Origin: Dyella silvae | GTDB taxonomy: Bacteria; Pseudomonadota; Gammaproteobacteria; Xanthomonadales; Rhodanobacteraceae | DNA: 64,000 nt | Assembly (NCBI RefSeq): GCF_026421305.1 | Contig: NZ_JAPJBQ010000006.1 | Coordinates: forward strand, 124,001 to 188,000 | Direction of reading: 5' to 3' | Shown here: positions 32,862 through 42,964 of the stretch, piece after piece | How the letters are laid out: each line of letters begins with the position of its first letter | Numbering within the stretch: the stretch's first letter is position 1 | Program-made: the position numbers and the translations under genes | The notes under the pieces: model-generated | The model's input: the letters and a program-made list of their open reading frames with translations, nothing else | Told to the model about the DNA's origin: nothing | Databases searched by the model: none

Positions 32862-34061
32862 ATGCCCGTACCGATTCAACCCCTTGCCGTCCGCGCGTAC
32901 ACGGCCACATCGGCGCTCGGCCAAGGTCTCGCAAGTCACTTTGCCGCCCTTTCGAGCCACCGCGGCGGCCTACGCGAAAACGACTTCAGCAGCGCCCCGC
33001 TGGCGTGCTGGATTGGCCGCGTCGCGGGCGTCGAAGATGCCTCGCTGCCGGCTGCCCACGCCGTGTGGGAATGCCGCAACAACCGCCTGGCCTGGCTGGG
33101 CCTGCATCAAGACCAGTTCCTGGATCAGGCGCTGGATGCACGCCAGCGCTACGGCGCCGCGCGCGTCGCGTTAATACTGGGTACGTCCACGGCAAGTATC
33201 GGCGCCACCGAGGAGGCTTACCGCCATCTCGATAGCGCAGGCCTGATGCCACCGGAATTGCGGCGCCCGCTGATTCACGCCCCCCATTCGCTGGCCGGCT
33301 TCGTTGCAGAAGCGCTGGGTCTGGAAGGCCCCTGCCTGACGGTTTCCACCGCTTGCTCCTCCAGCGCCAAGGTTTTTGCGAATGCCGAGCGGTTGATCCG
33401 CCTTGGACTAGCCGATGCCGCCGTGGTCGGTGGCGTGGACACCCTGTGCGACAGCGTGCTGTTTGGCTTTAACGCGCTGGAGCTGGTGTCGCCCGATCCT
33501 TGCCGCCCGTTCGATCAGACGCGTCACGGCATCTCCATTGGCGAGGCGGCCGGCTTTGCGTTGCTGGAGCGCGCCGACGCGGCACCGCATGCGCCGCGGC
33601 TGTTGGGTTATGGCGAATCGAGCGATGCGCACCATATGTCGACCCCGCATCCGGAAGGCCTGGGCGCCGAGCTCGCGCTGCACGATGCGTTGACGAGGGC
33701 CGGCCTTCGTCCGGAGCAGGTGGACTACATCAACCTGCACGGCACCGCGAGCCTCAAGAATGACGAAGTGGAAGCGGCGCTGATCGCGCGTGCCTTCCCC
33801 GCCAGCACGCGTGCCAGTTCGACCAAGGGATTCACCGGCCACACGCTGGGCGCCGCCGGCATTCTCGAAGCGGTCGTCGCGCTGGAGGCGATCCGCCACG
33901 GCCTGGTGCCGGGCAATCTCGGCTGCACGTCGCCGGACGCGGCCTGTGGCCCCCAACTCGCCCTGCAGAGCGAACAGCGGCGCGTCGATATCGCGCTGAG
34001 CAATTCCTTCGGTTTCGGCGGCAATAACGCCTGTCTCGCTTTCGGGAGGGCGCCGGCATGA
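32862..34061 (+). CDS. Beta-ketoacyl-ACP synthase of the aryl-polyene/xanthomonadin-like locus
   Basis: A 399-residue FabF-type ketosynthase that would elongate an aryl-primed chain. The catalytic triad is intact: Cys165 (STACSSS), His293 (NLHGTAS) and His327 (KGFTGHTLGAAG). ATG at 32862 is preferred over the adjacent in-frame GTG at 32859; the open frame extends to 32664 but crosses the divergent gene. The stop overlaps the chain-length-factor-like gene (ATGA). By analogy with aryl polyene systems the two may act as a heterodimer. Confidence 0.92.
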   Translation: MPVPIQPLAVRAYTATSALGQGLASHFAALSSHRGGLRENDFSSAPLACWIGRVAGVEDASLPAAHAVWECRNNRLAWLGLHQDQFLDQALDARQRYGAARVALILGTSTASIGATEEAYRHLDSAGLMPPELRRPLIHAPHSLAGFVAEALGLEGPCLTVSTACSSSAKVFANAERLIRLGLADAAVVGGVDTLCDSVLFGFNALELVSPDPCRPFDQTRHGISIGEAAGFALLERADAAPHAPRLLGYGESSDAHHMSTPHPEGLGAELALHDALTRAGLRPEQVDYINLHGTASLKNDEVEAALIARAFPASTRASSTKGFTGHTLGAAGILEAVVALEAIRHGLVPGNLGCTSPDAACGPQLALQSEQRRVDIALSNSFGFGGNNACLAFGRAPA

Positions 34062-34855
34062 CGACGTTGCAGGTCCATCTGCAAGGCATCGGCTTGTGGT
34101 CGGCCACGCTCGGCGACTTCGCTGCATTTCAGGCGCAGGAGCGGGGCGAGTCCGTACCGGCGCCGGCCGCGCGCCCACCCGCGGCGACGCTGCCGGCCAA
34201 CGAACGCCGCCGTGTACCGGAAAGTGTGTTGCTGGCCGTGGAAGTGGCGGGTCAGGCGGTGGCGATGAGCGGCCACGCTGCGAGCGAAATGCTGTGCGTG
34301 TTCAGCTCCGCCTATGGCGATCAGCTGATCTCCGATTACATGTGCGCGACGCTCGCCCTGGCGCCTGCGGAGCTTTCGCCCACGCGCTTCCACAATTCCG
34401 TACACAACGCGCCAGCGGGTTACTGGACCATGGCCACCGGCTGCCACGCGGCCTCCAGCGCCATCAGCGCCGGCCATGCGAGCTTCGGCGCCGGCCTGCT
34501 GGAAGCGGCCACGCTTTGCGTCGCGGAAGAACGCCCGGTGCTGCTGGTTTGCAGCGACATCGCCGGCAGCGGCCCGCTGGGCGAGATGAGCGGCACGCAT
34601 GCCTCGTTCGGATGCGCCCTGGTCCTGTCGCCCCAGGCCGAAACCGGCAGCCTCGGCCGCCTCGAGCTCACCCTGATGCCTCACGCCGACAAGTCGCTGC
34701 GGCCCGCATTGACCGGTGACACGTGGTACGAAACCAATCCCATTGCCGCATCCGCCTGGCCGCTGATGCAAAATCTTGCAAGAGGCCAGGGAAAGTGCAT
34801 CCTTGCCGCCGCTGAAACCCTGGCTCTGTGCGCCGTCCTGGAGACGCCTGTTTGA
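34058..34855 (+). CDS. Beta-ketoacyl synthase-like protein (chain length factor type)
   Basis: A 265-residue partial ketosynthase fold (N-terminal synthase-like domain, PF13723 type) of the kind paired with a full ketosynthase in aryl polyene clusters. The position of the active-site motif reads MATGCHAASSAISAG, so a cysteine (Cys129) is retained, although the downstream catalytic histidine region of a full enzyme is absent. It probably sets chain length. It is coupled on both sides: ATGA with the ketosynthase and TTGA with the glycosyltransferase. Confidence 0.85.
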   Translation: MTTLQVHLQGIGLWSATLGDFAAFQAQERGESVPAPAARPPAATLPANERRRVPESVLLAVEVAGQAVAMSGHAASEMLCVFSSAYGDQLISDYMCATLALAPAELSPTRFHNSVHNAPAGYWTMATGCHAASSAISAGHASFGAGLLEAATLCVAEERPVLLVCSDIAGSGPLGEMSGTHASFGCALVLSPQAETGSLGRLELTLMPHADKSLRPALTGDTWYETNPIAASAWPLMQNLARGQGKCILAAAETLALCAVLETPV

Positions 34856-35610
34856 ATACGTCCGATACCCGCTGGTGTGTTTTGATCCCCTGCCTCAATG
34901 AGGAAGCGGCGATCGGCGAGGTGGTGCAGTCCGTGCTCGCGCTCGGCGTCCCCGTGATTGTGGTGGACGACGGCTCGGACGACCGCACGCCCGACATTGT
35001 CAGCGCGCTGCCGGTCACCCTGCTTCGCCACCCGCAGCGCCGCGGCAAGGGCGAAGGCCTGCGCACCGGCTTCCGCGAAGCGCTGCGCCAGGGTTTCGAC
35101 GCCGTGCTCACCATGGATGGCGACGGCCAACATCTGGCCAGCGATATCCCGCGCATCGCCGCGGCAGCGCAGCGTTATCCCAACCACATCGTAATCGGCG
35201 CCCGCCTGCTCGACCGCGAGCAGCAGCCCAAGGCCCGGCGCCGCGCCAACGCTGTGGCGGACTGGGGCATTTCCTGGGCTTGCGCTCAACCGGTGATCGA
35301 CACCCAGAGCGGACAGCGCTGGTATCCACGCGCCGCGCTGGATCTGGTGGACCTGCCGGCCGAAAACTTCGTCTTTGAAGCGGCGATCTTGATCGCCGCC
35401 TCGCGCGACAAGGGTTTGGGCGTGGTTTCGGTGCCGATTGCCTCGCGATACCACGGCGAGTTCCGCATCAGCCATTTCAGCCCCGTGCGCGATGTCACGC
35501 GCATCACCACGTACACCGTCAGGCAGATCATCCACCATGGCGACGTCATGGCGAGCTACCGGCGTTCGCGTGCGAGCCGCCCCGTGGTCTTCGACACCGC
35601 CACGACGTAA
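34852..35610 (+). CDS. Glycosyltransferase family 2
   Basis: A 252-residue GT-A enzyme. It has VLIPCLNEEAAIGEVV near the start, the nucleotide-binding DDGSDDRTPD and the acceptor-side TMDGDGQHLASD. There is no clear transmembrane helix, so it is cytoplasmic or peripheral. TTG at 34852 is chosen because it overlaps the preceding stop (TTGA), as do the other junctions of this operon, and ATG further upstream at 34828 lies inside the previous gene. It may glycosylate the pigment or its lipid carrier. Confidence 0.88.
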   Translation: MNTSDTRWCVLIPCLNEEAAIGEVVQSVLALGVPVIVVDDGSDDRTPDIVSALPVTLLRHPQRRGKGEGLRTGFREALRQGFDAVLTMDGDGQHLASDIPRIAAAAQRYPNHIVIGARLLDREQQPKARRRANAVADWGISWACAQPVIDTQSGQRWYPRAALDLVDLPAENFVFEAAILIAASRDKGLGVVSVPIASRYHGEFRISHFSPVRDVTRITTYTVRQIIHHGDVMASYRRSRASRPVVFDTATT

Positions 35611-35635
35611 CCCTTGATGATGCGTGTGCCTGAGA

Positions 35636-35680
35636 GCCTGTTCACGATCTCCGCGTAGCCCGCGTTGTTCGTGAACAGGC
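35636..35680. terminator. Bidirectional terminator between the two pigment operons
   Basis: GCCTGTTCACGA (35636-35647) pairs perfectly with TCGTGAACAGGC (35669-35680) around a 21-base loop, between convergent genes. A second small hairpin, TAAGAG-CGT-CTCTTA (35683-35697), runs into the stop of the minus-strand gene. Confidence 0.65.
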
Positions 35681-35694
35681 GCTAAGAGCGTCTC

Positions 35695-36201
35695 TTAATC
35701 GAGATCGCCCAGCATGGCGTCCATTTTCGGCTGTCCCAACCACTTGGCAATGTCTTCGCCAAGTTCCTTGGACGTGCGATCGAGCACGGAGCAGTTGCCC
35801 TTAAAGCCGGCAAATGCACCACCCATGGAATTGCGCTTGGCTTTGAAACTCGCGACCAGCTGACCACCGTCGTACAGCTTGCCTTTCACCGACATCGACT
35901 TATGGTGGCCCATGAAGGCGTTGCCATCCGAAACAGCGCCGGTAATTTCCATCACCAGCACGCGGTTGGCGCTGCTGGGAGAAACATCTGCCGCGGTTTC
36001 AATCTTGAGTCCGCCATCGTTGCCGAACTTGGCCACGTATTCGGAAAGATGCTCCTCCAACTGACATTCGCGCTTCACCGCTCCGGCGACTTCCGCGTCT
36101 TCGTTGAACGGAATCTTTTGTTGGATGGTGACGACATCCGCGGCGTAAGCCGACTGCCACAGACCAAGCGTGGCAACGGCCACGTACAACAACTTGCGCA
36201 T
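35695..36201 (-). CDS. Unknown periplasmic protein at the end of the pigment operon
   Basis: A 168-residue protein with a signal peptide (MRKLLYVAVATLGLWQSAYA, cleavage near AYA-AD). The mature part contains two cysteines (KRECQLEEHL and FKGNCSVLD) that may pair, and predicted alternating strands. No family is recognised. It starts 56 bases after the dehydratase stop on the same strand. ATG 36201 is preceded by GGAG. It may have its own promoter and no pigment role. Confidence 0.7.
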   Translation of the reverse strand: MRKLLYVAVATLGLWQSAYAADVVTIQQKIPFNEDAEVAGAVKRECQLEEHLSEYVAKFGNDGGLKIETAADVSPSSANRVLVMEITGAVSDGNAFMGHHKSMSVKGKLYDGGQLVASFKAKRNSMGGAFAGFKGNCSVLDRTSKELGEDIAKWLGQPKMDAMLGDLD

Positions 36202-36257
36202 ATCTTGCTCCCTAAGATACGGACCGAACGGTTTCCGGTCGCGAGTATGTAGCAAAG

Positions 36258-36695
36258 TCAGTCCTGCGTGTAGAGCACCGCCGCTCGCCCGCTGACCAGC
36301 AAACGCGCTGCCTGCAGAATACGAAACGCATATTGCGCCCCGCTGTCATCTGCATAGAGACGTTCCGCATAAACGTCCAACCGGCCCCGTGAGTCATCGA
36401 TGTATTCGACATCGATCTGTACATCCCGAAGGCTTACCAAACGCCCTCCCGACCGCTCAACGTCGATGCCTTGAAGACGCGCCAGCAGAGCGCCGTGCAC
36501 CGCAATGGCCTGCGCACCGTGCTCGGCCAAATGCACGGCATGCAAGCCGTTCTCCGAGCGCAGCGGGTGATTGCGCAGTGTGCTCACGTCGGTAATGGCA
36601 TGAATGGTTGCATCGTCCCACGTCACCACGGCATCCAGCAGTGCCATGGCACCCTGATGGGGAATGAGGTGAGCCCAGTCAGTCTTGGCGAGCAT
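36258..36695 (-). CDS. Hotdog-fold 3-hydroxyacyl-ACP dehydratase (ApeP-like)
   Basis: A 145-residue hotdog protein that would dehydrate beta-hydroxyacyl-ACP intermediates of a polyene chain. The N-terminal LIPHQGAMALLDAVVTWDD and NHPLRSENGLHAVHLAEHGAQAIAVH stretches match the dehydratase family of aryl polyene clusters. It overlaps the MMPL gene by 17 bases. A second dehydratase is encoded at 40521-40820, so two enzymes are available for the polyene steps. Confidence 0.85.
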   Translation of the reverse strand: MLAKTDWAHLIPHQGAMALLDAVVTWDDATIHAITDVSTLRNHPLRSENGLHAVHLAEHGAQAIAVHGALLARLQGIDVERSGGRLVSLRDVQIDVEYIDDSRGRLDVYAERLYADDSGAQYAFRILQAARLLVSGRAAVLYTQD

Positions 36696-38997
36696 GCGGA
36701 GCCATCAGGATGGAAAGACAGAAATGGAAAGCGACACCCAGGCTCACCGTGAGGCCAATGGCCCGAAGTACCGGAATCGAACTCCAGGCCAGCATGCCGA
36801 ACACAAGCAGCGCCGAAAGCACGCACACCAGCGTTGCGTGTAGCGTGCGCCGTTGTTCGGCGGCATCGCCCGTATCGCGCTCAAAAAACAGCGCGTAATG
36901 CAGCCCGAGGCCGGCCGCCAGAATCAATGCCACCAGATGGAACAGTGAGACTTCCACTCCGGCAACTCGCTCCACGGCCAGCACCAGAAACGTTGCCAGC
37001 GTCATCGGTGCCAACACGTGCCAGGCACGGCGCAGGCTGCGCAATGCGACCGTAATGGCCACCACCAGCAAGAGCGTCGCCGCGAGCAAGGCATGCAGGA
37101 TGCGTGCTCGGTAATCGACCACCAGCGACTCGGCCGCCCCCTTCAGGTCGAGCAGGCGGACGGCGCCACCGCTCTGCTGTGCAAGCGATTGCAATGCCGC
37201 CACGTCATGCACACCACTCAGCGTGCCCAGGCCGAGCCAATGAGTGTCGCGCTGCACCAGCATGGCGGACAGGCGCTGTCCCAGTGGCGACACGGCGAAG
37301 CGCGCCGGCGTGAGCAATGGCAGCGTGCGCGCCCTCTCCACATCGTCCAGGAATGGAACAAACAGATCGTGCTGGAACGGCATGTCCTGTTGCGCTTGCG
37401 CCAGCGCTTTGTTGAGGGCTGCAGGTTCCGGCAGGCGCTCCTGCCGCGCACGCTGCACGGACGCGCTCGGGAGATAGCGCGAAGGCAGCTCAATGGCGTC
37501 TGCTGCATGTCGGGCCACCAATGCATCCACGGCGGGCTCCAGGCGCTCTGACAGCTCCAGTACACCCTGTTCGCTGGGGGCGTCCAGCACGAGCAGGTAG
37601 CGCACATCCGGTGCGCCGAGTGCCTCTCGCAAGCTCGCGTCACGCTGCAGCAAATCCTTCGGCAGCGGCGTCAGCGCCGACAGGTCGTTTTGCCAGAACG
37701 GGCCTTGTGCGAAAGCGAGCATCACCACAGTGGCGACCGCAACGACCATTGGAATCCACCGTGGCCGGGGCAATGCATCCACCCACTGCCGGGCACGAAT
37801 CAGCCAGCGCATGTCGGCGACATCGTGCACACGCACGGGTAACAGGTACGGCAGGAGGTAGCGCGTACTAAAGCCTGCAACCAGAAGGCCCGTCACGGTG
37901 AAGACTGCCAGCTGCTTCAGCCCGTTCACGCCGGAGGCATAGAACGCCAGATAGGCGATGCACGCCGAGGCAATGGCGGTGAGTAGCAGTGGCCAGAGGT
38001 CGCGAACGCTCTGCACGGCGTCTTCGCCTGCGCGCCGATGGCTGAGTACGCGAATAGGGTATTCCTGTGCGACACCCAGCAAGGTGAAGCCAAACGCGAG
38101 CGTGATGCCATGCACCTGCGGAAACAGCATCACCAGCGCTGCAATACCGGCGAGTGCCGAGCTGGCGATGGGCAAAGCGGAAAGCAGCAACGATCCGATG
38201 CTGCGGTAGGCCAGCAACAACAGCACAACAAAGCCGATCGTGGAGATGCGACCGATCCATTCCGCCTGCCCACGCGTCTGCGCGTTCGCCACGACACTGA
38301 AGTAACCGGGACCACTGAAGGCCAGCGTCGCTCCCTCGTGCCCCGGCAAGGCGTCGAACATGCGCTGGATGCCACTGATCGCTGCGTTCTGCGCATCGGG
38401 ATCAAAGCCTGGCGCACGCGTCATGACCAGCAACAAAGCTTCGTGATTCTTGGAAAACCACACGCCTTCGATCAATTCGGGTGACCTGGCCGGCGCCCAA
38501 CGCTCAGCCAGTTTCAGCACCTCGAGGGTGGGATCTCGCGGCAACAGCCCCTTCAGCAGACTGCCGGCAGGCGAAGAGAGATCCTCCAGTCGCTGCTGTA
38601 GCTCGTCGCGCAAATAGGGCGCATCCAGGCGCTGGTGATCCAGCGTCGGCGAAAGCAGGTATCGGTACGGCAGCAAGCTGCTATCCAATGCCGTGATATC
38701 GAAGCTGCCGTTGAGTACCTGCGTATAACTGTCGTCCTTGCGAAGCGACGCCGCCAGTTGCTGGCTGAGCGATGCCAGCTGTTCATCCGGCTTGCCTGAG
38801 ATGGCGAGCAACAGCAGGCGCGAGCCAGGGCCTTCGCCCACTTGCTCCATCAACAGCTGCTGATCCGGCGTCGTGGGCGCGGGCATGAAGCTGCGCAGAT
38901 CCGTGCTGACGCGCAGGTTCTGGAGCACGAACACAGCGAGCAGCGCCAGCGTCGCCAGCCACAGCACCAGCAGCGTCAGACGACCGCCGCGCTGCAT
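36679..38997 (-). CDS. MMPL/RND-type exporter of the pigment operon
   Basis: A 772-residue transporter with two repeats of a transmembrane block, each with a large periplasmic loop: one helix near the N-terminus (LLVLWLATLALLAVFVLQNL), helices about 255-420, a second start near 445, and helices about 640-770. MMPL exporters move lipid-linked products across the inner membrane. Here the cargo is probably the acylated or ACP-released polyene. The ATG lies 2 bases after the LolA-like stop. Start 38997 is preferred; the frame opens further upstream. Confidence 0.88.
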   Translation of the reverse strand: MQRGGRLTLLVLWLATLALLAVFVLQNLRVSTDLRSFMPAPTTPDQQLLMEQVGEGPGSRLLLLAISGKPDEQLASLSQQLAASLRKDDSYTQVLNGSFDITALDSSLLPYRYLLSPTLDHQRLDAPYLRDELQQRLEDLSSPAGSLLKGLLPRDPTLEVLKLAERWAPARSPELIEGVWFSKNHEALLLVMTRAPGFDPDAQNAAISGIQRMFDALPGHEGATLAFSGPGYFSVVANAQTRGQAEWIGRISTIGFVVLLLLAYRSIGSLLLSALPIASSALAGIAALVMLFPQVHGITLAFGFTLLGVAQEYPIRVLSHRRAGEDAVQSVRDLWPLLLTAIASACIAYLAFYASGVNGLKQLAVFTVTGLLVAGFSTRYLLPYLLPVRVHDVADMRWLIRARQWVDALPRPRWIPMVVAVATVVMLAFAQGPFWQNDLSALTPLPKDLLQRDASLREALGAPDVRYLLVLDAPSEQGVLELSERLEPAVDALVARHAADAIELPSRYLPSASVQRARQERLPEPAALNKALAQAQQDMPFQHDLFVPFLDDVERARTLPLLTPARFAVSPLGQRLSAMLVQRDTHWLGLGTLSGVHDVAALQSLAQQSGGAVRLLDLKGAAESLVVDYRARILHALLAATLLLVVAITVALRSLRRAWHVLAPMTLATFLVLAVERVAGVEVSLFHLVALILAAGLGLHYALFFERDTGDAAEQRRTLHATLVCVLSALLVFGMLAWSSIPVLRAIGLTVSLGVAFHFCLSILMAPHARQD

Positions 38998-38999
38998 GC

Positions 39000-39647
39000 T
39001 CAACCGCCCTGACAGAGCGCTACCAGCGCCTCTCGGGTGGGCGCTGCAGGCATCTTCGCCGCCAGCTCGCCCAACAGGTCGATAGACAAATCGCCATCCG
39101 CTTCTTGCATGCGCATACAACGAGGCTCGTTGCCACTACCGTCGATCTCGATGTGACTGACCGAGCGCGCGAGCTTCGCATCGCGCGGCGTGAGCGTCAG
39201 TGTCCAACGCTTCGCATTGTTGGCGCTGTGTTGCACGGTGAATGCCTGCTCCAGCCGCGAAGCATCGCCGCCCAGCAAGGCGACAAAACTATCCAGAAGT
39301 ATCTGCAACTGCGGTGCGCGCTTGAGCGAGAAGGTCCGTGGCTCACGTCCTTCGCGTTGCTGTGTCACTTCGCCATTGGCAATGGTCGACACTTCGCGAT
39401 TGGGGTGCTCGACCCGTCGCTCCAGCCGATCGTCCCCAAGCCAGGCAAGCTGACCGGAAACCACCAGCGGCTCATCCAACATTTTCATGAAACGCGCTTC
39501 CGCAAACGGCGTGCGCGCGGGCGCCGGGCGCCCCAGCGAGCTCACCAATGCGCGCGCTGTGACCGCGTCTTCAGGCGCCGACGCGTTCGCGCACAGCGAC
39601 AGGATCAACCCGCCCAGGAGCATCCACGTCTTGCTGCCAGAAATCAT
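39000..39647 (-). CDS. LolA-like outer-membrane lipid carrier protein
   Basis: A 215-residue exported protein (signal about MISGSKTWMLLGGLILSLCANA) with the LolA/LolB-type fold expected from RFMKMLDEPLVVSGQLAWLGDD and the following antiparallel strands. It probably shuttles the hydrophobic product or its lipid conjugate across the periplasm, working with the MMPL protein. It overlaps the end of the acyltransferase by 77 bases if ATG 39647 is used; ATG 39623 would reduce the overlap to 53. Confidence 0.78.
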   Translation of the reverse strand: MISGSKTWMLLGGLILSLCANASAPEDAVTARALVSSLGRPAPARTPFAEARFMKMLDEPLVVSGQLAWLGDDRLERRVEHPNREVSTIANGEVTQQREGREPRTFSLKRAPQLQILLDSFVALLGGDASRLEQAFTVQHSANNAKRWTLTLTPRDAKLARSVSHIEIDGSGNEPRCMRMQEADGDLSIDLLGELAAKMPAAPTREALVALCQGG

Positions 39648-40524
39648 AGAAATTGAACCAGTTGTAGGGGGCCACGTGGACGTAGTGTTCCATGCGGCGG
39701 GCAAAGCGGGCGAGCACATCATCCAGTGCTTGCGCACGCTCGTTGCGTGGGATTTCCACACGGTCGGCGAACGGTTCGAAGATCAGGCGGTACCGGTTGC
39801 CGCCCTCGTACAGCCCAAAGCACAGCATCACCGGTACGCGCAGCGAATGCGCGAGCAGCCAGGGGCCCACCGGGAACGGGGCAGGCTCGCCCAGGAAAGG
39901 CGTGCGGCGAAGCACTTCGTGCTCACGGCCGCGATCGGCGAGCAGGGCCACCATCGCGCCCTGTTCACACGCCTCGGACATGGCCAGCGTGATGGACGCG
40001 CCGCCCATCGAGGCATCGATCACCGCGGCGCCGATGTCGGGCGCCAGCGCTTCGAGCAGCTCTGTCATGGCCGGGGTCTTCTGCTTGTCCAGCACCACGC
40101 GCAGGGGAATATCCGGACGGCGCGAACTGATGGCGCGCAGCGCTTCAAAACTGCCCTGGTGCGAACCCAGCAAGAGCAGGCCACGTCCTTGATCGAGGGA
40201 GGCTTCGAGTTCGTCGAGGCCTTCTACGGTGATGTCGAAGCCCTTCTCACCATGGGCCAGCAGAAAAATGCGGTCCAGCGTGATCGCAGCAAAACTGTAG
40301 ATGTGCTTCATCACCTGCCGTGTCGTCGCCGGCTTGCCGAGCACGCGCTCGAGGAAGCGGCGCGAGGCCGTACGCTCCGGGCGTCGACGCAAGTAGAAGT
40401 AGAGCGTGACCGGATACAGCACCAGCCGTCCCAACGGGCGGCCGCCCACCAGCGCGATGGTGCGGATCAGCCACAGCGCAAAATGCCCACCGCCTTCGGG
40501 CCGGCTCTGCCAGTGCTCGCTCAT
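39571..40524 (-). CDS. Lipid A biosynthesis-type (LPLAT/LpxL-like) acyltransferase
   Basis: A 317-residue inner-membrane acyltransferase. The catalytic HX4E motif is in LLLGSHQGSFEALRA, followed by ALLADRGREHEVLRRTPFLGEPAPFP. In aryl polyene and xanthomonadin clusters such enzymes are thought to attach the polyene to a lipid anchor. The start overlaps the dehydratase stop (ATGA). Confidence 0.88.
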   Translation of the reverse strand: MSEHWQSRPEGGGHFALWLIRTIALVGGRPLGRLVLYPVTLYFYLRRRPERTASRRFLERVLGKPATTRQVMKHIYSFAAITLDRIFLLAHGEKGFDITVEGLDELEASLDQGRGLLLLGSHQGSFEALRAISSRRPDIPLRVVLDKQKTPAMTELLEALAPDIGAAVIDASMGGASITLAMSEACEQGAMVALLADRGREHEVLRRTPFLGEPAPFPVGPWLLAHSLRVPVMLCFGLYEGGNRYRLIFEPFADRVEIPRNERAQALDDVLARFARRMEHYVHVAPYNWFNFYDFWQQDVDAPGRVDPVAVRERVGA

Positions 40525-40820
40525 GCGGCGCCCTCGACCGTGCCTCGCGCAATCGCGACATCGTTCCGGCGAATCTCGAAACGCACACGCCCGTTCACAT
40601 CGGTCAACACGACTTCGGCGACCTGCTGCGGCAACAGCGGCGCCACAAACTTTGCTTCCACGATGCGCGCCAGACGCTCGCCTCGCCACAGACGCAACGC
40701 GTTTGCCACGTGCTCCAGCAACAGCACGCCGGGCACCAGCGGCGAGCCGGGGAAATGGCCAGGCAGGCAAGGATGGTCGCCCGCTACCTGGAACGCGTGA
40801 TGAAAGCTCGCCGAGGTCAT
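40521..40820 (-). CDS. FabA/FabZ-like hotdog dehydratase (ApeI-like)
   Basis: A 99-residue hotdog protein with DHPCLPGHFPGSPLVPGVLLLEHV, the FabZ signature including His22. It is shorter than FabZ (about 150), as is typical of the ApeI class. ATG 40820 overlaps the stop of the upstream membrane-protein gene (ATGA), and its stop overlaps the acyltransferase start, so it is tightly coupled on both sides. Confidence 0.87.
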   Translation of the reverse strand: MTSASFHHAFQVAGDHPCLPGHFPGSPLVPGVLLLEHVANALRLWRGERLARIVEAKFVAPLLPQQVAEVVLTDVNGRVRFEIRRNDVAIARGTVEGAA

Positions 40821-41539
40821 TTCGAAGCGGGATCTTCGCCACGCACCAGTTGCGGCCAGCGCGCCGCAACGCCCAGTGCCAGCGCATGCAGGCGGGGGTG
40901 CTCGATGTGTCGCAGATGCCAACGACGGAACACGTTTTCCAGCAGAAACGCCGCGGCAATCAACCCATAGCCGCCCAGATGCATGTACGACTGCGCCAGT
41001 GCCGCAGGCACCGGCCACGGCGAGGCGATGCCTAGCGCATACAGCAAGCCGCCCGGCTCGGCGCACAGCAACAGCACGGCAAGCACCCCTGCCTGCGCGG
41101 CGGTAAGCAGCGTCCAGAACCATGTGAGCTGGCGGGCATAGCGCGCCACGCCCGGAACCTGCAGCTGGCCGGCGCCTTCCACCGCCGCGATGAAGCGCGC
41201 GATCAAAGGCGTCGATCCGGCGCGCAGACTGCGCCCGAACAGCGAAGCCAGCAGCACGTTGATCGCAATAGGCACGCACTCGAGCAGCAAACCCACCATG
41301 CCATGCAGCCACAACACCGCCACCACGGCCAGGGTGAGCGTCCAGCCAATCCAGGACCGCGGCCGGCGCGCGGCAAGACCCGGCAGCATCAGCAAGGTAA
41401 GCAGCAGCACACAGGCGGCAAGCGAGAAACCCTCGCGATGGGTGAGCACACCGGCCATCGCCAGCACCGGATAGGCGAACATCAACGGCAGCCAGCGCCG
41501 TGATACCGATCGCAGTGGGGAGACGGGTGATTGCGACAT
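40817..41539 (-). CDS. COG4648-type integral membrane protein of the pigment operon
   Basis: A 240-residue protein with about six predicted helices (for example FSLAACVLLLTLLMLPGL, LTLAVVAVLWLHGMVGLL, LLTAAQAGVLAVLLLCAEPGG). Members of this class are known mainly from aryl polyene and xanthomonadin clusters; the role is undefined. It follows the ACP gene by 79 bases and is coupled to the dehydratase gene by a 4-base overlap. Confidence 0.75.
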   Translation of the reverse strand: MSQSPVSPLRSVSRRWLPLMFAYPVLAMAGVLTHREGFSLAACVLLLTLLMLPGLAARRPRSWIGWTLTLAVVAVLWLHGMVGLLLECVPIAINVLLASLFGRSLRAGSTPLIARFIAAVEGAGQLQVPGVARYARQLTWFWTLLTAAQAGVLAVLLLCAEPGGLLYALGIASPWPVPAALAQSYMHLGGYGLIAAAFLLENVFRRWHLRHIEHPRLHALALGVAARWPQLVRGEDPASK

Positions 41540-41618
41540 AGGTGGCTCAGCCTGCCTGGTCTCGAACGGGACGCGGCGAAAGTCTGCCGTGTGCGAGCCG
41601 CATCATGCCCGATCTTGC

Positions 41619-41909
41619 TTAAACGGCACGATGCCGTTCGATGTGCTCGGACAACGTGCGCAGGCTATTGAAGATCTTGCGGTTCTCAGGATTGTCCGAC
41701 CGCAGCTGGAACCCGTACCGCTTGGACACGGCCAGCGCGACTTCCAGCGCATCAATGGAATCCAGGCCGAGATCGCCGCCGAACAAGGGGGCATCGGGGT
41801 CGATCTGGTCGGCCGTCACCGTTTCCAGATTGAGGCTTTCCACGATCAAAGTGGCCAGTTCGTGTTGTGCGGTGCTCTGCTCGACCATGCTGGTCCATAC
41901 CTGATACAT
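41619..41909 (-). CDS. Acyl carrier protein of the pigment operon
   Basis: A 96-residue dedicated acyl carrier protein that would hold the growing aryl polyene as a thioester. The phosphopantetheine serine lies in GGDLGLDSIDALEVAL. GGGAGAGGGGC immediately before ATG 41909 supports that start over ATG 41888. It is the first gene of the minus-strand operon and is divergent from xanB2, 68 bases away. Confidence 0.93.
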   Translation of the reverse strand: MYQVWTSMVEQSTAQHELATLIVESLNLETVTADQIDPDAPLFGGDLGLDSIDALEVALAVSKRYGFQLRSDNPENRKIFNSLRTLSEHIERHRAV

Positions 41910-41977
41910 GCCCCTCTCCCCCAGAGGCGACGGCCTACAAGTGTAACATAGCGACCCCTACCCCCATTTCTAATGCC

Positions 41978-42964
41978 ATGGTTCTGGGTTGTGAAAACGT
42001 CAGGCTGGCGGAGCGCCGGGCCCCTCAGGTGTCCTACCGGCACGGTGCTCCGGAATCGGTATTGAAGGAACCTGGCACCCTCGCCGTGTTCGGGTTTGGC
42101 ACCGGCGCGGTCCTCAGCGACGATCCACGCTGGCTGAGGGTGGACCTGGAGAGCTTCGACGCCCCTGCAACGCTGGAGCTCTGGCAGGTCGACGGGCCAG
42201 TGACTCACGGAAGGGTGGGCGACCTGCAGTGGTCAGCGGGCGAGGGTTGGCTGTTTGCGGCCATGACCCTTAACGAAGAGGTGCATGGCGGGCCCGGCAA
42301 CACCGCCGCCTCGGTCTACGCCCAGTTGCGCGAGTTCCTCGCGACCCGGCATGAACGCTACGTGCAGCGCATCTGGAATTACCTGGGTGACATTAACCGG
42401 GGCGAAGGCGACATCGAGCGCTACAAGCAGTTCTGCGAGGGCCGTGCCGAGGGCATGGGCAACTTCTTCGCCGACGGCTTTCCGGCCGCTACCGCCATCG
42501 GACACCACGCATCCGAACCGCGCCTGCAGGTCTACGTGCTGGCTTGCGATGAACCCGGCGTGCGTGTGGAGAATCCCCGCCAGGTCAGCGCGTGGCGCTA
42601 CCCACGCCAGTACGGCCGGACGCCACCCAGCTTTGCGCGCGCGATGGCCCTGCCCGGACAGGACGCGCTGGCCATCTCAGGCACAGCCGCCGTGGTCGGC
42701 CACGCCTCGACCCATGAGGACGACCTGCTGGCTCAGCTGGACGAAACCCTGGTGAACCTCGAAGCGTTGCTGGCGAACGCCGGCATGGCCGCGGGATTCG
42801 ACACGCAGTCGCCGCTCAAGGCGTACGTGAGGCATCCCACCGACGCGCCCATCGTGCGCGACTTCATGCAGCGCCGCCTGCCCGGCGTTCCGGTGCTACT
42901 GCTGCACGGTGACATCTGCCGCCAGGAACTGCTCGTCGAGATCGACGGCTGGCGTTACGCGTAA
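41978..42964 (+). CDS. xanB2: XanB2-type chorismatase (chorismate to 3- and 4-hydroxybenzoate)
   Basis: A 328-residue chorismatase. In Xanthomonas, XanB2 turns chorismate into 3-hydroxybenzoate for xanthomonadin and 4-hydroxybenzoate for ubiquinone. Family segments seen are RYVQRIWNYLGDINRGEGDIERYKQFCEGRAEG split across the middle domain, and the C-terminal LLHGDICRQELLVEIDG. ATG 41978 gives the expected size; the preceding frame runs through the divergent promoter, and no strong ribosome binding site is seen. It is divergent from the acyl carrier protein gene. Confidence 0.92.
   Translation: MVLGCENVRLAERRAPQVSYRHGAPESVLKEPGTLAVFGFGTGAVLSDDPRWLRVDLESFDAPATLELWQVDGPVTHGRVGDLQWSAGEGWLFAAMTLNEEVHGGPGNTAASVYAQLREFLATRHERYVQRIWNYLGDINRGEGDIERYKQFCEGRAEGMGNFFADGFPAATAIGHHASEPRLQVYVLACDEPGVRVENPRQVSAWRYPRQYGRTPPSFARAMALPGQDALAISGTAAVVGHASTHEDDLLAQLDETLVNLEALLANAGMAAGFDTQSPLKAYVRHPTDAPIVRDFMQRRLPGVPVLLLHGDICRQELLVEIDGWRYA

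What the first reader, a model, noticed from the sequence alone, without database searches (positions are those of the whole stretch)
32862..42964. Split aryl-polyene/xanthomonadin-like pigment locus lacking ligase and ketoreductase
Two convergent operons and a divergent xanB2 hold a ketosynthase, chain-length-factor-like partner, GT2, ACP, membrane protein, two hotdog dehydratases, LPLAT acyltransferase, LolA-like carrier, MMPL exporter and chorismatase. Known aryl polyene and xanthomonadin clusters also need an aryl:ACP ligase and a ketoreductase, and often a methyltransferase; none is visible here. The product is likely a xanthomonadin-like polyene with missing steps supplied elsewhere or by primary fatty acid synthesis. 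The arrangement may be a lineage-specific variant.
Basis: partly seen in the sequence, partly recalled or inferred. Interest (0 to 1): 0.7.

Follow-up and report, generated by a model that had tools for sequence, protein, structure and literature searches.

The report
Pigment pathway shared between two loci
A yellow-pigment gene cluster that looks incomplete has its two missing enzymes elsewhere in the genome, one of them inside a second pigment cluster, and in related bacteria the two clusters tend to lose genes in a complementary way, as if they worked as one system.

Summary
Window 32862-42964 carries a xanthomonadin-type aryl polyene locus (KS, CLF-like, GT2, secreted protein, two hotdog dehydratases, MMPL, LolA, acyltransferase, membrane protein, ACP, XanB2) with no aryl ligase and no ketoreductase (KR).

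Both are in the genome. A XanA2-like ligase lies 27 kb beyond xanB2 (C19:194186-195568), beside tsaC/topA, as in all 30 loci checked (this genome and 29 relatives). The only KR over the TIGR01831 cut-off lies in a second, ape-type cluster on contig C15, which has no ligase.

Of 195 genomes of the family, 110 show only the xan-type KR, 74 only the ape-type, 3 both, 8 neither. In five genomes the ape site is reduced to KR alone (2) or KR plus the membrane gene (3): exactly what the xan locus there lacks. In 47 genomes, MMPL/LolA are missing from the xan stretch in 21 and from the ape stretch in 13, never from both. A genome of the same genus carries an internally deleted xan-KR.

Best reading: the ape-type KR, and often other ape genes, serve the xan pathway in trans. 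Chemistry and pigment are untested, kinship-aware tests are underpowered, and missing genes were not sought elsewhere in each genome.

The parts
32862..34061 (+). ketosynthase (KS)
   Evidence: NF006618 499.6 bits, over cut-off; best solved match 6qsp chain A
34058..34855 (+). chain-length-factor-like partner of the KS
   Evidence: PF13723; best solved match 6qsp chain B
34828..35610 (+). family-2 glycosyltransferase-like protein (start uncertain, 34828 or 34852)
   Evidence: PF00535 88.5 bits
35695..36201 (-). 168-aa secreted protein of unknown function; in relative G038 (L171) the KR gene lies between this gene and the dehydratase
   Evidence: no family hit; order in L171
36201..36258 (-). 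junction where relatives carry the xan-type KR; no trace of it here
   Evidence: KR between GT2 and DH1 in L163-L166 and L171; no KR remnant in the window
36258..36695 (-). hotdog dehydratase DH1, ApeP-like
   Evidence: PF22817 E 1.6e-4, below cut-off
36679..38997 (-). MMPL-family exporter
   Evidence: PF03176
39000..39623 (-). LolA-like carrier
   Evidence: PF19574 140.4 bits
39571..40524 (-). lipid A acyltransferase-type (LPLAT) acyltransferase
   Evidence: PF03279
40521..40820 (-). hotdog dehydratase DH2, FabA/FabZ-like
   Evidence: PF07977
40817..41539 (-). membrane protein (MEM), equivalent in position to ApeG/COG4648
   Evidence: no family hit; position only
41619..41909 (-). acyl carrier protein
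   Evidence: NF006617 135 bits, over cut-off
41978..42964 (+). XanB2-type chorismatase
   Evidence: PF21168; TIGR04444 193 bits, below its cut-off 325; homologues at this place in relatives

Best explanation
The locus is a xanthomonadin-type aryl polyene assembly line that depends on enzymes encoded elsewhere. XanB2 makes 3-hydroxybenzoate from chorismate; the relocated ligase (C19:194186-195568) loads it on the ACP; KS-CLF extends it with malonyl units; the ketoreduction in each cycle is done in trans by the ape-type KR (C15:799696-800421); DH1/DH2 dehydrate; GT2/acyltransferase attach the product to a lipid; LolA/MMPL move it to the outer membrane. In this lineage the xan-KR was lost where the ape cluster is present, and each cluster can shed functions the other keeps. 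Shown here: gene content, positions, complementary distribution, an internally deleted KR in a genome of the same genus, lone KRs at reduced ape sites. Inferred: the chemistry, the cross-use of enzymes, and the pigment.
For: Ligase: one match in this genome; 75 of 78 family genomes have a match, single in 74 and in two pieces in G028; beside tsaC and topA in 30 of 30 loci held (this genome and 29 relatives, the best-scoring of the 75); 61-63% identical to ligases next to XanB2 in L073, L079, L082, L083. KR: C15 KR 389 bits, the only one of 35 hits over the TIGR01831 cut-off 338.85. Of 195 family genomes: xan-KR only 110, ape-KR only 74, both 3 (G002, G028, G168), neither 8 (tallied by hand). 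In 16 xan-KR genomes examined no ape gene was matched near leuDH: 14 have leuDH close to the FUSC/acyl-CoA dehydrogenase genes, G066 has about 9 kb of other DNA between, G059 is cut by a contig end. Lone ape-KR in that neighbourhood in G067, G052, G061, G003 and G128, with the membrane gene kept in exactly the three whose xan locus lacks it. MMPL and LolA: missing from the xan stretch in 21, from the ape stretch in 13, from both in 0 of 47 (expected 5.8; P 7e-5 ignoring kinship). G022 keeps at the ape site only MMPL, LolA, membrane protein and two dehydratases, all missing from its xan stretch. G013 has an internal deletion in its xan-KR. Lone KRs keep the catalytic motif and look to be under purifying selection (dN/dS 0.07-0.14).
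Against: No biochemistry or pigment data. Losses of genes other than KR were scored in stretches of at most 20 kb; whether the missing ape or xan genes lie elsewhere in those genomes was not searched. G168 keeps both KRs and two complete clusters, so the two are not incompatible. G022 has neither KR although it keeps the xan core; G181 has the xan KS and no KR match. G006 lacks the membrane gene in both stretches, its lone KR (66%) is not at the usual site, and no XanB2 is in its xan stretch; nor in those of G015, G021 and G068. On well-supported branches there are only 5 independent pairs for KR (opposite in all five in 192 of 200 draws; p 0.0625) and 4 for MMPL (2.7 opposite on average, 0 same; p 0.25). 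Dehydratase losses are too few to test (expected double losses 0.5-0.6, seen 0). The 47 genomes were chosen for having the ape-KR (all but G022). In one search only 14 candidates per genome were scored and the ape query was not run on the 66 xan-KR genomes outside the first 78, so a few 'both' could be missed there.
Confidence: 0.8

Rival explanations
1. A fatty-acid FabG or another general SDR does the ketoreduction; the ape-KR serves only the ape cluster, and the exclusivity reflects something else.
For: Several SDRs are about as close to the xan-KR (41%) as the ape-KR is (43%); G022 and G181 have the xan KS but neither KR.
Against: It does not explain why ape-KR alone, or with the membrane gene, is found at the reduced ape site in five genomes that lack a xan-KR, nor the 110/74/3/8 split in 195 genomes.
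Confidence: 0.14
2. The xan locus is decaying because the ape cluster has replaced it, and KR loss is its first sign.
For: Some xan stretches lack six genes (KR, membrane gene, MMPL, LolA, both dehydratases) while the ape cluster is complete: G007 and G040.
Against: KS, CLF and GT2 were found in all 48 tabulated xan loci and ACP and acyltransferase in 47 (all but G068), and the KS has no internal stop in any listed match; in five genomes it is the ape site that is reduced, down to what the xan locus lacks.
Confidence: 0.06

Closest known systems
Xanthomonadin (xan/pig) clusters of Xanthomonas and the Lysobacter enzymogenes OH11 yellow-pigment cluster (PMC3691225: abstract and first part of Results read)
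   Same: KS with a CLF-like partner, two dehydratases, ACP, acyltransferase, LolA-like carrier, exporter, XanB2-type enzyme; KR essential in Lysobacter
   Different: the KR is part of those clusters (KR homologues beside DH1 in such loci); here the locus has none and the genome's TIGR01831 KR is in a second cluster
Arcuflavin (arc) loci of Azoarcus sp. BH72 (PMC3949708: abstract, first part of Results, Discussion read)
   Same: a xanthomonadin-like pathway over two unlinked loci, both needed for pigment
   Different: there one gene set is divided between two loci; here two clusters of different types overlap in function and lose parts reciprocally
Aryl polyene (ape) cluster of E. coli CFT073 (PMC8253772: abstract and first part of Results read)
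   Same: the C15 cluster has KS/CLF, ACPs, membrane protein, two dehydratases, acyltransferases, thioesterase, LolA, MMPL, methyltransferase and KR of the same kinds (by reading of the ORFs)
   Different: C15 has no ligase: there is no room for one between the apeG-like and apeI-like genes, where E. coli has apeH

Membership tests
Xanthomonadin-type aryl polyene cluster | KS plus CLF-like partner | tested here: met
Xanthomonadin-type aryl polyene cluster | XanB2-type chorismatase beside the ACP | tested here: met
   PF21168 and position; below the TIGR04444 cut-off; reaction type not testable from sequence
Xanthomonadin-type aryl polyene cluster | ACP, dehydratases, acyltransferase, LolA, MMPL | tested here: met
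   ApeP-like hit is below its cut-off
Xanthomonadin-type aryl polyene cluster | KR within the locus | tested here: not met
   none in locus; supplied elsewhere by my reading. The locus alone is therefore not filed as a complete member
Xanthomonadin-type aryl polyene cluster | aryl ligase within the locus | tested here: not met
   ligase 27 kb away
Xanthomonadin-type aryl polyene cluster | halogenase (Xanthomonas) and methyltransferase | not tested
   no methyltransferase seen in the locus; one SAM methyltransferase-like gene in the C15 cluster by reading of its sequence; halogenase not searched
Xanthomonadin-type aryl polyene cluster | yellow aryl polyene product | not testable with these tools
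   strain and pigment unknown
TIGR01831 (fabG_rel) ketoreductase, C15 | score over curated cut-off | tested here: met
   389.1 vs 338.85 bits
Ape-type cluster, C15 | dedicated aryl ligase in cluster | tested here: not met
   none of 8 PF00501 hits is on C15; no hit of the XanA2-like ligase query in the 48 ape stretches (reduced ones included; two end at contig ends). G004, outside that set and without a xan KS, does have a 30% ligase hit in its ape cluster

The most novel reading that the evidence does not exclude
Two unlinked aryl polyene clusters of different types have fused functionally into one network: each keeps its own elongating core (KS, CLF, ACP), while one ligase, one ketoreductase, one exporter pair and one membrane protein serve both. 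Reciprocal gene loss then turns the arrangement into either a xan locus plus a captured lone ape KR, or a xan core that depends wholly on the ape cluster. Cluster-by-cluster annotation would wrongly call both clusters incomplete.
Probability: 0.55. Interest if true: 0.75.

Novelty: new variant of a known kind. Interest (0 to 1): 0.6.

Why it matters
It shows, within one bacterial family and even within one genus, how two biosynthetic gene clusters can come to share enzymes and trim each other. It gives natural variants (xan locus plus lone KR; xan core plus full ape cluster; both complete in G168) for testing whether type II polyene enzymes are interchangeable, and warns that cluster-by-cluster annotation may misread such pathways as broken.

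Tried and rejected
Primary-FAS supply of the KR was considered and ranked second (see rivals). A relocated xan-KR in the same genome was looked for with the L024 KR: the best hit is the ape-KR at 43%, then other SDRs at 41%; no orthologue. A KR remnant in the window was looked for at E up to 10: none; of the 27 fetched loci and the window searched, only G013 has one. In one search a weak 28% SDR hit was scored as xan-KR in G021; it is not one and was set to absent. G015 was dropped from the loss counts because its ape contig ends; G068 counts as xan-lost although only KS-CLF-GT2 were in its stretch and the rest was not sought elsewhere. Kinship-aware tests were underpowered (5 pairs). Literature searches in open-licence papers (listings capped) listed, apart from the Azoarcus two-locus paper, no title or abstract start that describes shared or complementary aryl polyene clusters; one Rhodanobacter paper reports two predicted aryl polyene clusters per genome and, in the passages seen, does not link them (PMC11596576). 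No structure prediction was run.
Full report
What is there. The window is G000:C19:124001-188000 of a 4.45 Mb genome in 22 contigs. The reported locus is real and ordered as described, with one more gene, for a 168-aa secreted protein. It has no AMP-ligase and no ketoreductase. The KS and CLF-like proteins both find 6qsp, chains A and B, as their best solved match; that 6qsp is the Xenorhabdus ApeO:ApeC pair is recalled, not read.

The ligase. The genome has eight AMP-binding hits; one, 461 aa, lies on the same contig at 194186-195568, 27 kb past xanB2 and 6 kb past the window. It is 61-63% identical to ligases that sit next to XanB2 in L073, L079, L083 (Stenotrophomonas) and L082. In the family, 75 of 78 genomes have a match, single in 74 and in two pieces in G028. 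In all 30 loci held (this genome and 29 relatives, the best-scoring of the 75) tsaC and topA are beside it, and purD in 27 of 30. So its separation from the xan locus looks like an old feature of these bacteria, not a peculiarity of this genome.

The ketoreductase. Of 35 TIGR01831 hits in the genome only C15:799699-800409 passes the cut-off. It lies in a second aryl polyene cluster of ape type (17 genes, named by reading the ORFs and used as queries): KR, ApeP-like DH, KS, methyltransferase, thioesterase, acyltransferase, ApeI-like DH, membrane protein, ACP, LPLAT, CLF, two KS, MMPL, LolA, GT2, ACP. It has no ligase: there is no room for one between the membrane-protein and ApeI-like genes, where E. 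coli has apeH (PMC8253772, first part of Results). Relatives such as L024, L025, Stenotrophomonas and Xanthomonas carry a different KR (42-46% identical to the ape-KR) in the xan locus itself.

Distribution. In 78 family genomes the xan-KR (56% identity or more to L024's) is in 46 and the ape-KR (66% or more) in 30; both are in two only, G002 and G028, whose xan-type KR is 56-57% identical and stands beside a divergent KS (42-43%) rather than in a normal xan locus. Over all 195 held genomes of the family at 90% completeness or more: xan-KR only 110, ape-KR only 74, both 3 (adding G168), neither 8 (G017, G022, G023, G025, G087, G142, G143, G181; G023 has only an ambiguous 45% hit) (tallied by hand from best E-values and match counts; the ape type was checked with the ape query for the 46 such genomes outside the first 78 and for G168, 79-92% identity). 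For the 66 xan-KR genomes outside the first 78 the ape query was not run, and one search scored only 14 candidates per genome, so the count of 'both' is a lower bound; in the first 78 the xan query had found all 30 ape-KRs. In the window's own genus, 19 genomes: 6 ape-KR, 13 xan-KR. On a 94-row KS+CLF+GT2 tree (quick search) the xan-KR state needs at least 10 changes and the ape-KR 12; well-supported branches force 6. Independent pairs on such branches: 5, all opposite in 192 of 200 draws and 4 of 5 in the other 8, none the same way; p 0.0625, the minimum for five.

Loss in progress. G013, in the same genus and grouped with xan-KR genomes G063, G102 and G109, has a complete ape cluster and a xan-KR gene with an internal deletion covering residues 113-187, by motif reading the stretch with the catalytic Tyr and Lys; the length is not a multiple of three. 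The window has no trace of a xan-KR; in relative L171 the KR lies between the secreted-protein gene and DH1, which are adjacent here.

The ape site. Of the 29 ape-KR stretches (L177-L205), leuDH is in 19, and leuDH, the FUSC gene or the acyl-CoA dehydrogenase gene in 24; FUSC lies on either side of the cluster. G020, G006, G004, G002 and G028 show none of the three. In 16 xan-KR genomes examined no ape gene was matched between these flanks (at least 30% of a query): 14 have a short interval, G066 has about 9 kb of other DNA, G059 is cut by the contig end. In G067, G052, G061, G003 and G128 the neighbourhood holds only KR (G061, G003) or KR plus membrane gene (G067, G052, G128). Among the six shared functions their xan loci lack exactly KR, or KR plus membrane gene. 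A further genome, G006, has a lone KR (66%) elsewhere. G099, in the window's genus, shows a half-deleted ape cluster: KR, DHP, membrane gene and one ACP kept, others absent or in fragments; its xan locus lacks KR and membrane gene. G022 keeps at the site only LolA, MMPL, membrane gene and both dehydratases, all missing from its xan stretch, but has no KR of either type. Whether the rest of the ape cluster lies elsewhere in these genomes was not searched.

Complementarity in numbers. Of 47 genomes with both stretches held (27 first seen, this genome and G022 among them, and 20 held out; G015 dropped for a contig end), MMPL and LolA are missing from the xan stretch in 21, from the ape stretch in 13, from both in 0 (5.8 expected; hypergeometric P 7.4e-5, kinship ignored). 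Membrane gene: 36, 4, 1 (G006; 3.1 expected; P 0.035). Dehydratases: no double loss, but 0.5-0.6 expected, so uninformative. Independent pairs for MMPL on well-supported branches: 4, of which 2.7 on average go the other way and none the same way, p 0.25. In the held-out 20 no function is missing from both. All 47 except G022 were picked for having ape-KR, so the KR itself is judged on the 195-genome counts only. XanB2 was not in the xan stretch of G006, G015, G021 and G068.

Selection. All 15 ape-KR genes compared (9 in full clusters, 5 lone, 1 in the half-deleted cluster of G099) keep the Ser...YxxxK motif. dN/dS is 0.067 between two lone copies, 0.075-0.139 between lone and cluster copies, 0.057-0.081 among the rest (13 chosen pairs). 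The lone genes seem maintained, perhaps slightly relaxed.

Interpretation. The simplest account is that the ape-type KR serves the xan assembly line. Where both KRs were present one was lost, and when the ape cluster was later deleted, the genes that the xan locus had come to need stayed behind. Reaction steps (3-hydroxybenzoate from chorismate, activation by the AMP-ligase, extension, export) follow from work on XanB2, ArcB and ArcT (PMC3949708) and the Lysobacter and E. coli clusters (PMC3691225, PMC8253772); they are not shown here. Whether the ape cluster was ancestral and often lost, or spread by recombination at its conserved site, is open; G168, with both clusters complete, is sister to G051, which has no ape gene at that site and no ape-KR.

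Limits. Yellow colonies and predicted aryl polyene clusters are reported for Luteibacter flocculans (PMC9965599, passages) and two Rhodanobacter species (PMC11596576, passages).

Noticed in passing
L252 (G168, C6) and L232 (G168, C7): A complete xan locus including its KR and a complete ape cluster in one genome, the only such case found among 195; sister to a genome without the ape cluster.
   Followed up: partly
L221 and L173 (G022): Xan core plus an ape site reduced to LolA, MMPL, membrane gene and two dehydratases, but no KR match of either type at E 1e-50 in the genome.
   Followed up: partly
G005 C9 and C12, genus g6: The xan locus itself is split: KS-CLF-GT2 on one contig, KR and ligase about 30 kb apart on another; the other four g6 genomes likewise have KR and KS far apart or on different contigs.
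   Followed up: no
L206 and L207 (G002, G028): A third, divergent aryl-polyene-like cluster with KS at 42-43% and KR at 56-58% identity.
   Followed up: no
window 35695-36201: Secreted 168-aa protein at the end of the minus-strand operon, matched in few of the loci compared (L039, L059, L094, L171); function unknown.
   Followed up: no
L213 (G017): No xan KS match and a decayed ape site (partial KR, KS, membrane gene, CLF, MMPL, LolA) although the ligase is kept.
   Followed up: no
L203 (G004): Ape-type cluster with its own ligase-like gene (30% identity) in a genome without a xan KS match.
   Followed up: no
G000:C21:2196-14455: Three AMP-binding hits in very long open frames (over 2100 aa), probably an NRPS cluster.
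   Followed up: no
L153:10400-16000 (G021): KS and SDR genes (28% hits) just beyond the xan locus, probably another fatty-acid or polyketide cluster.
   Followed up: no
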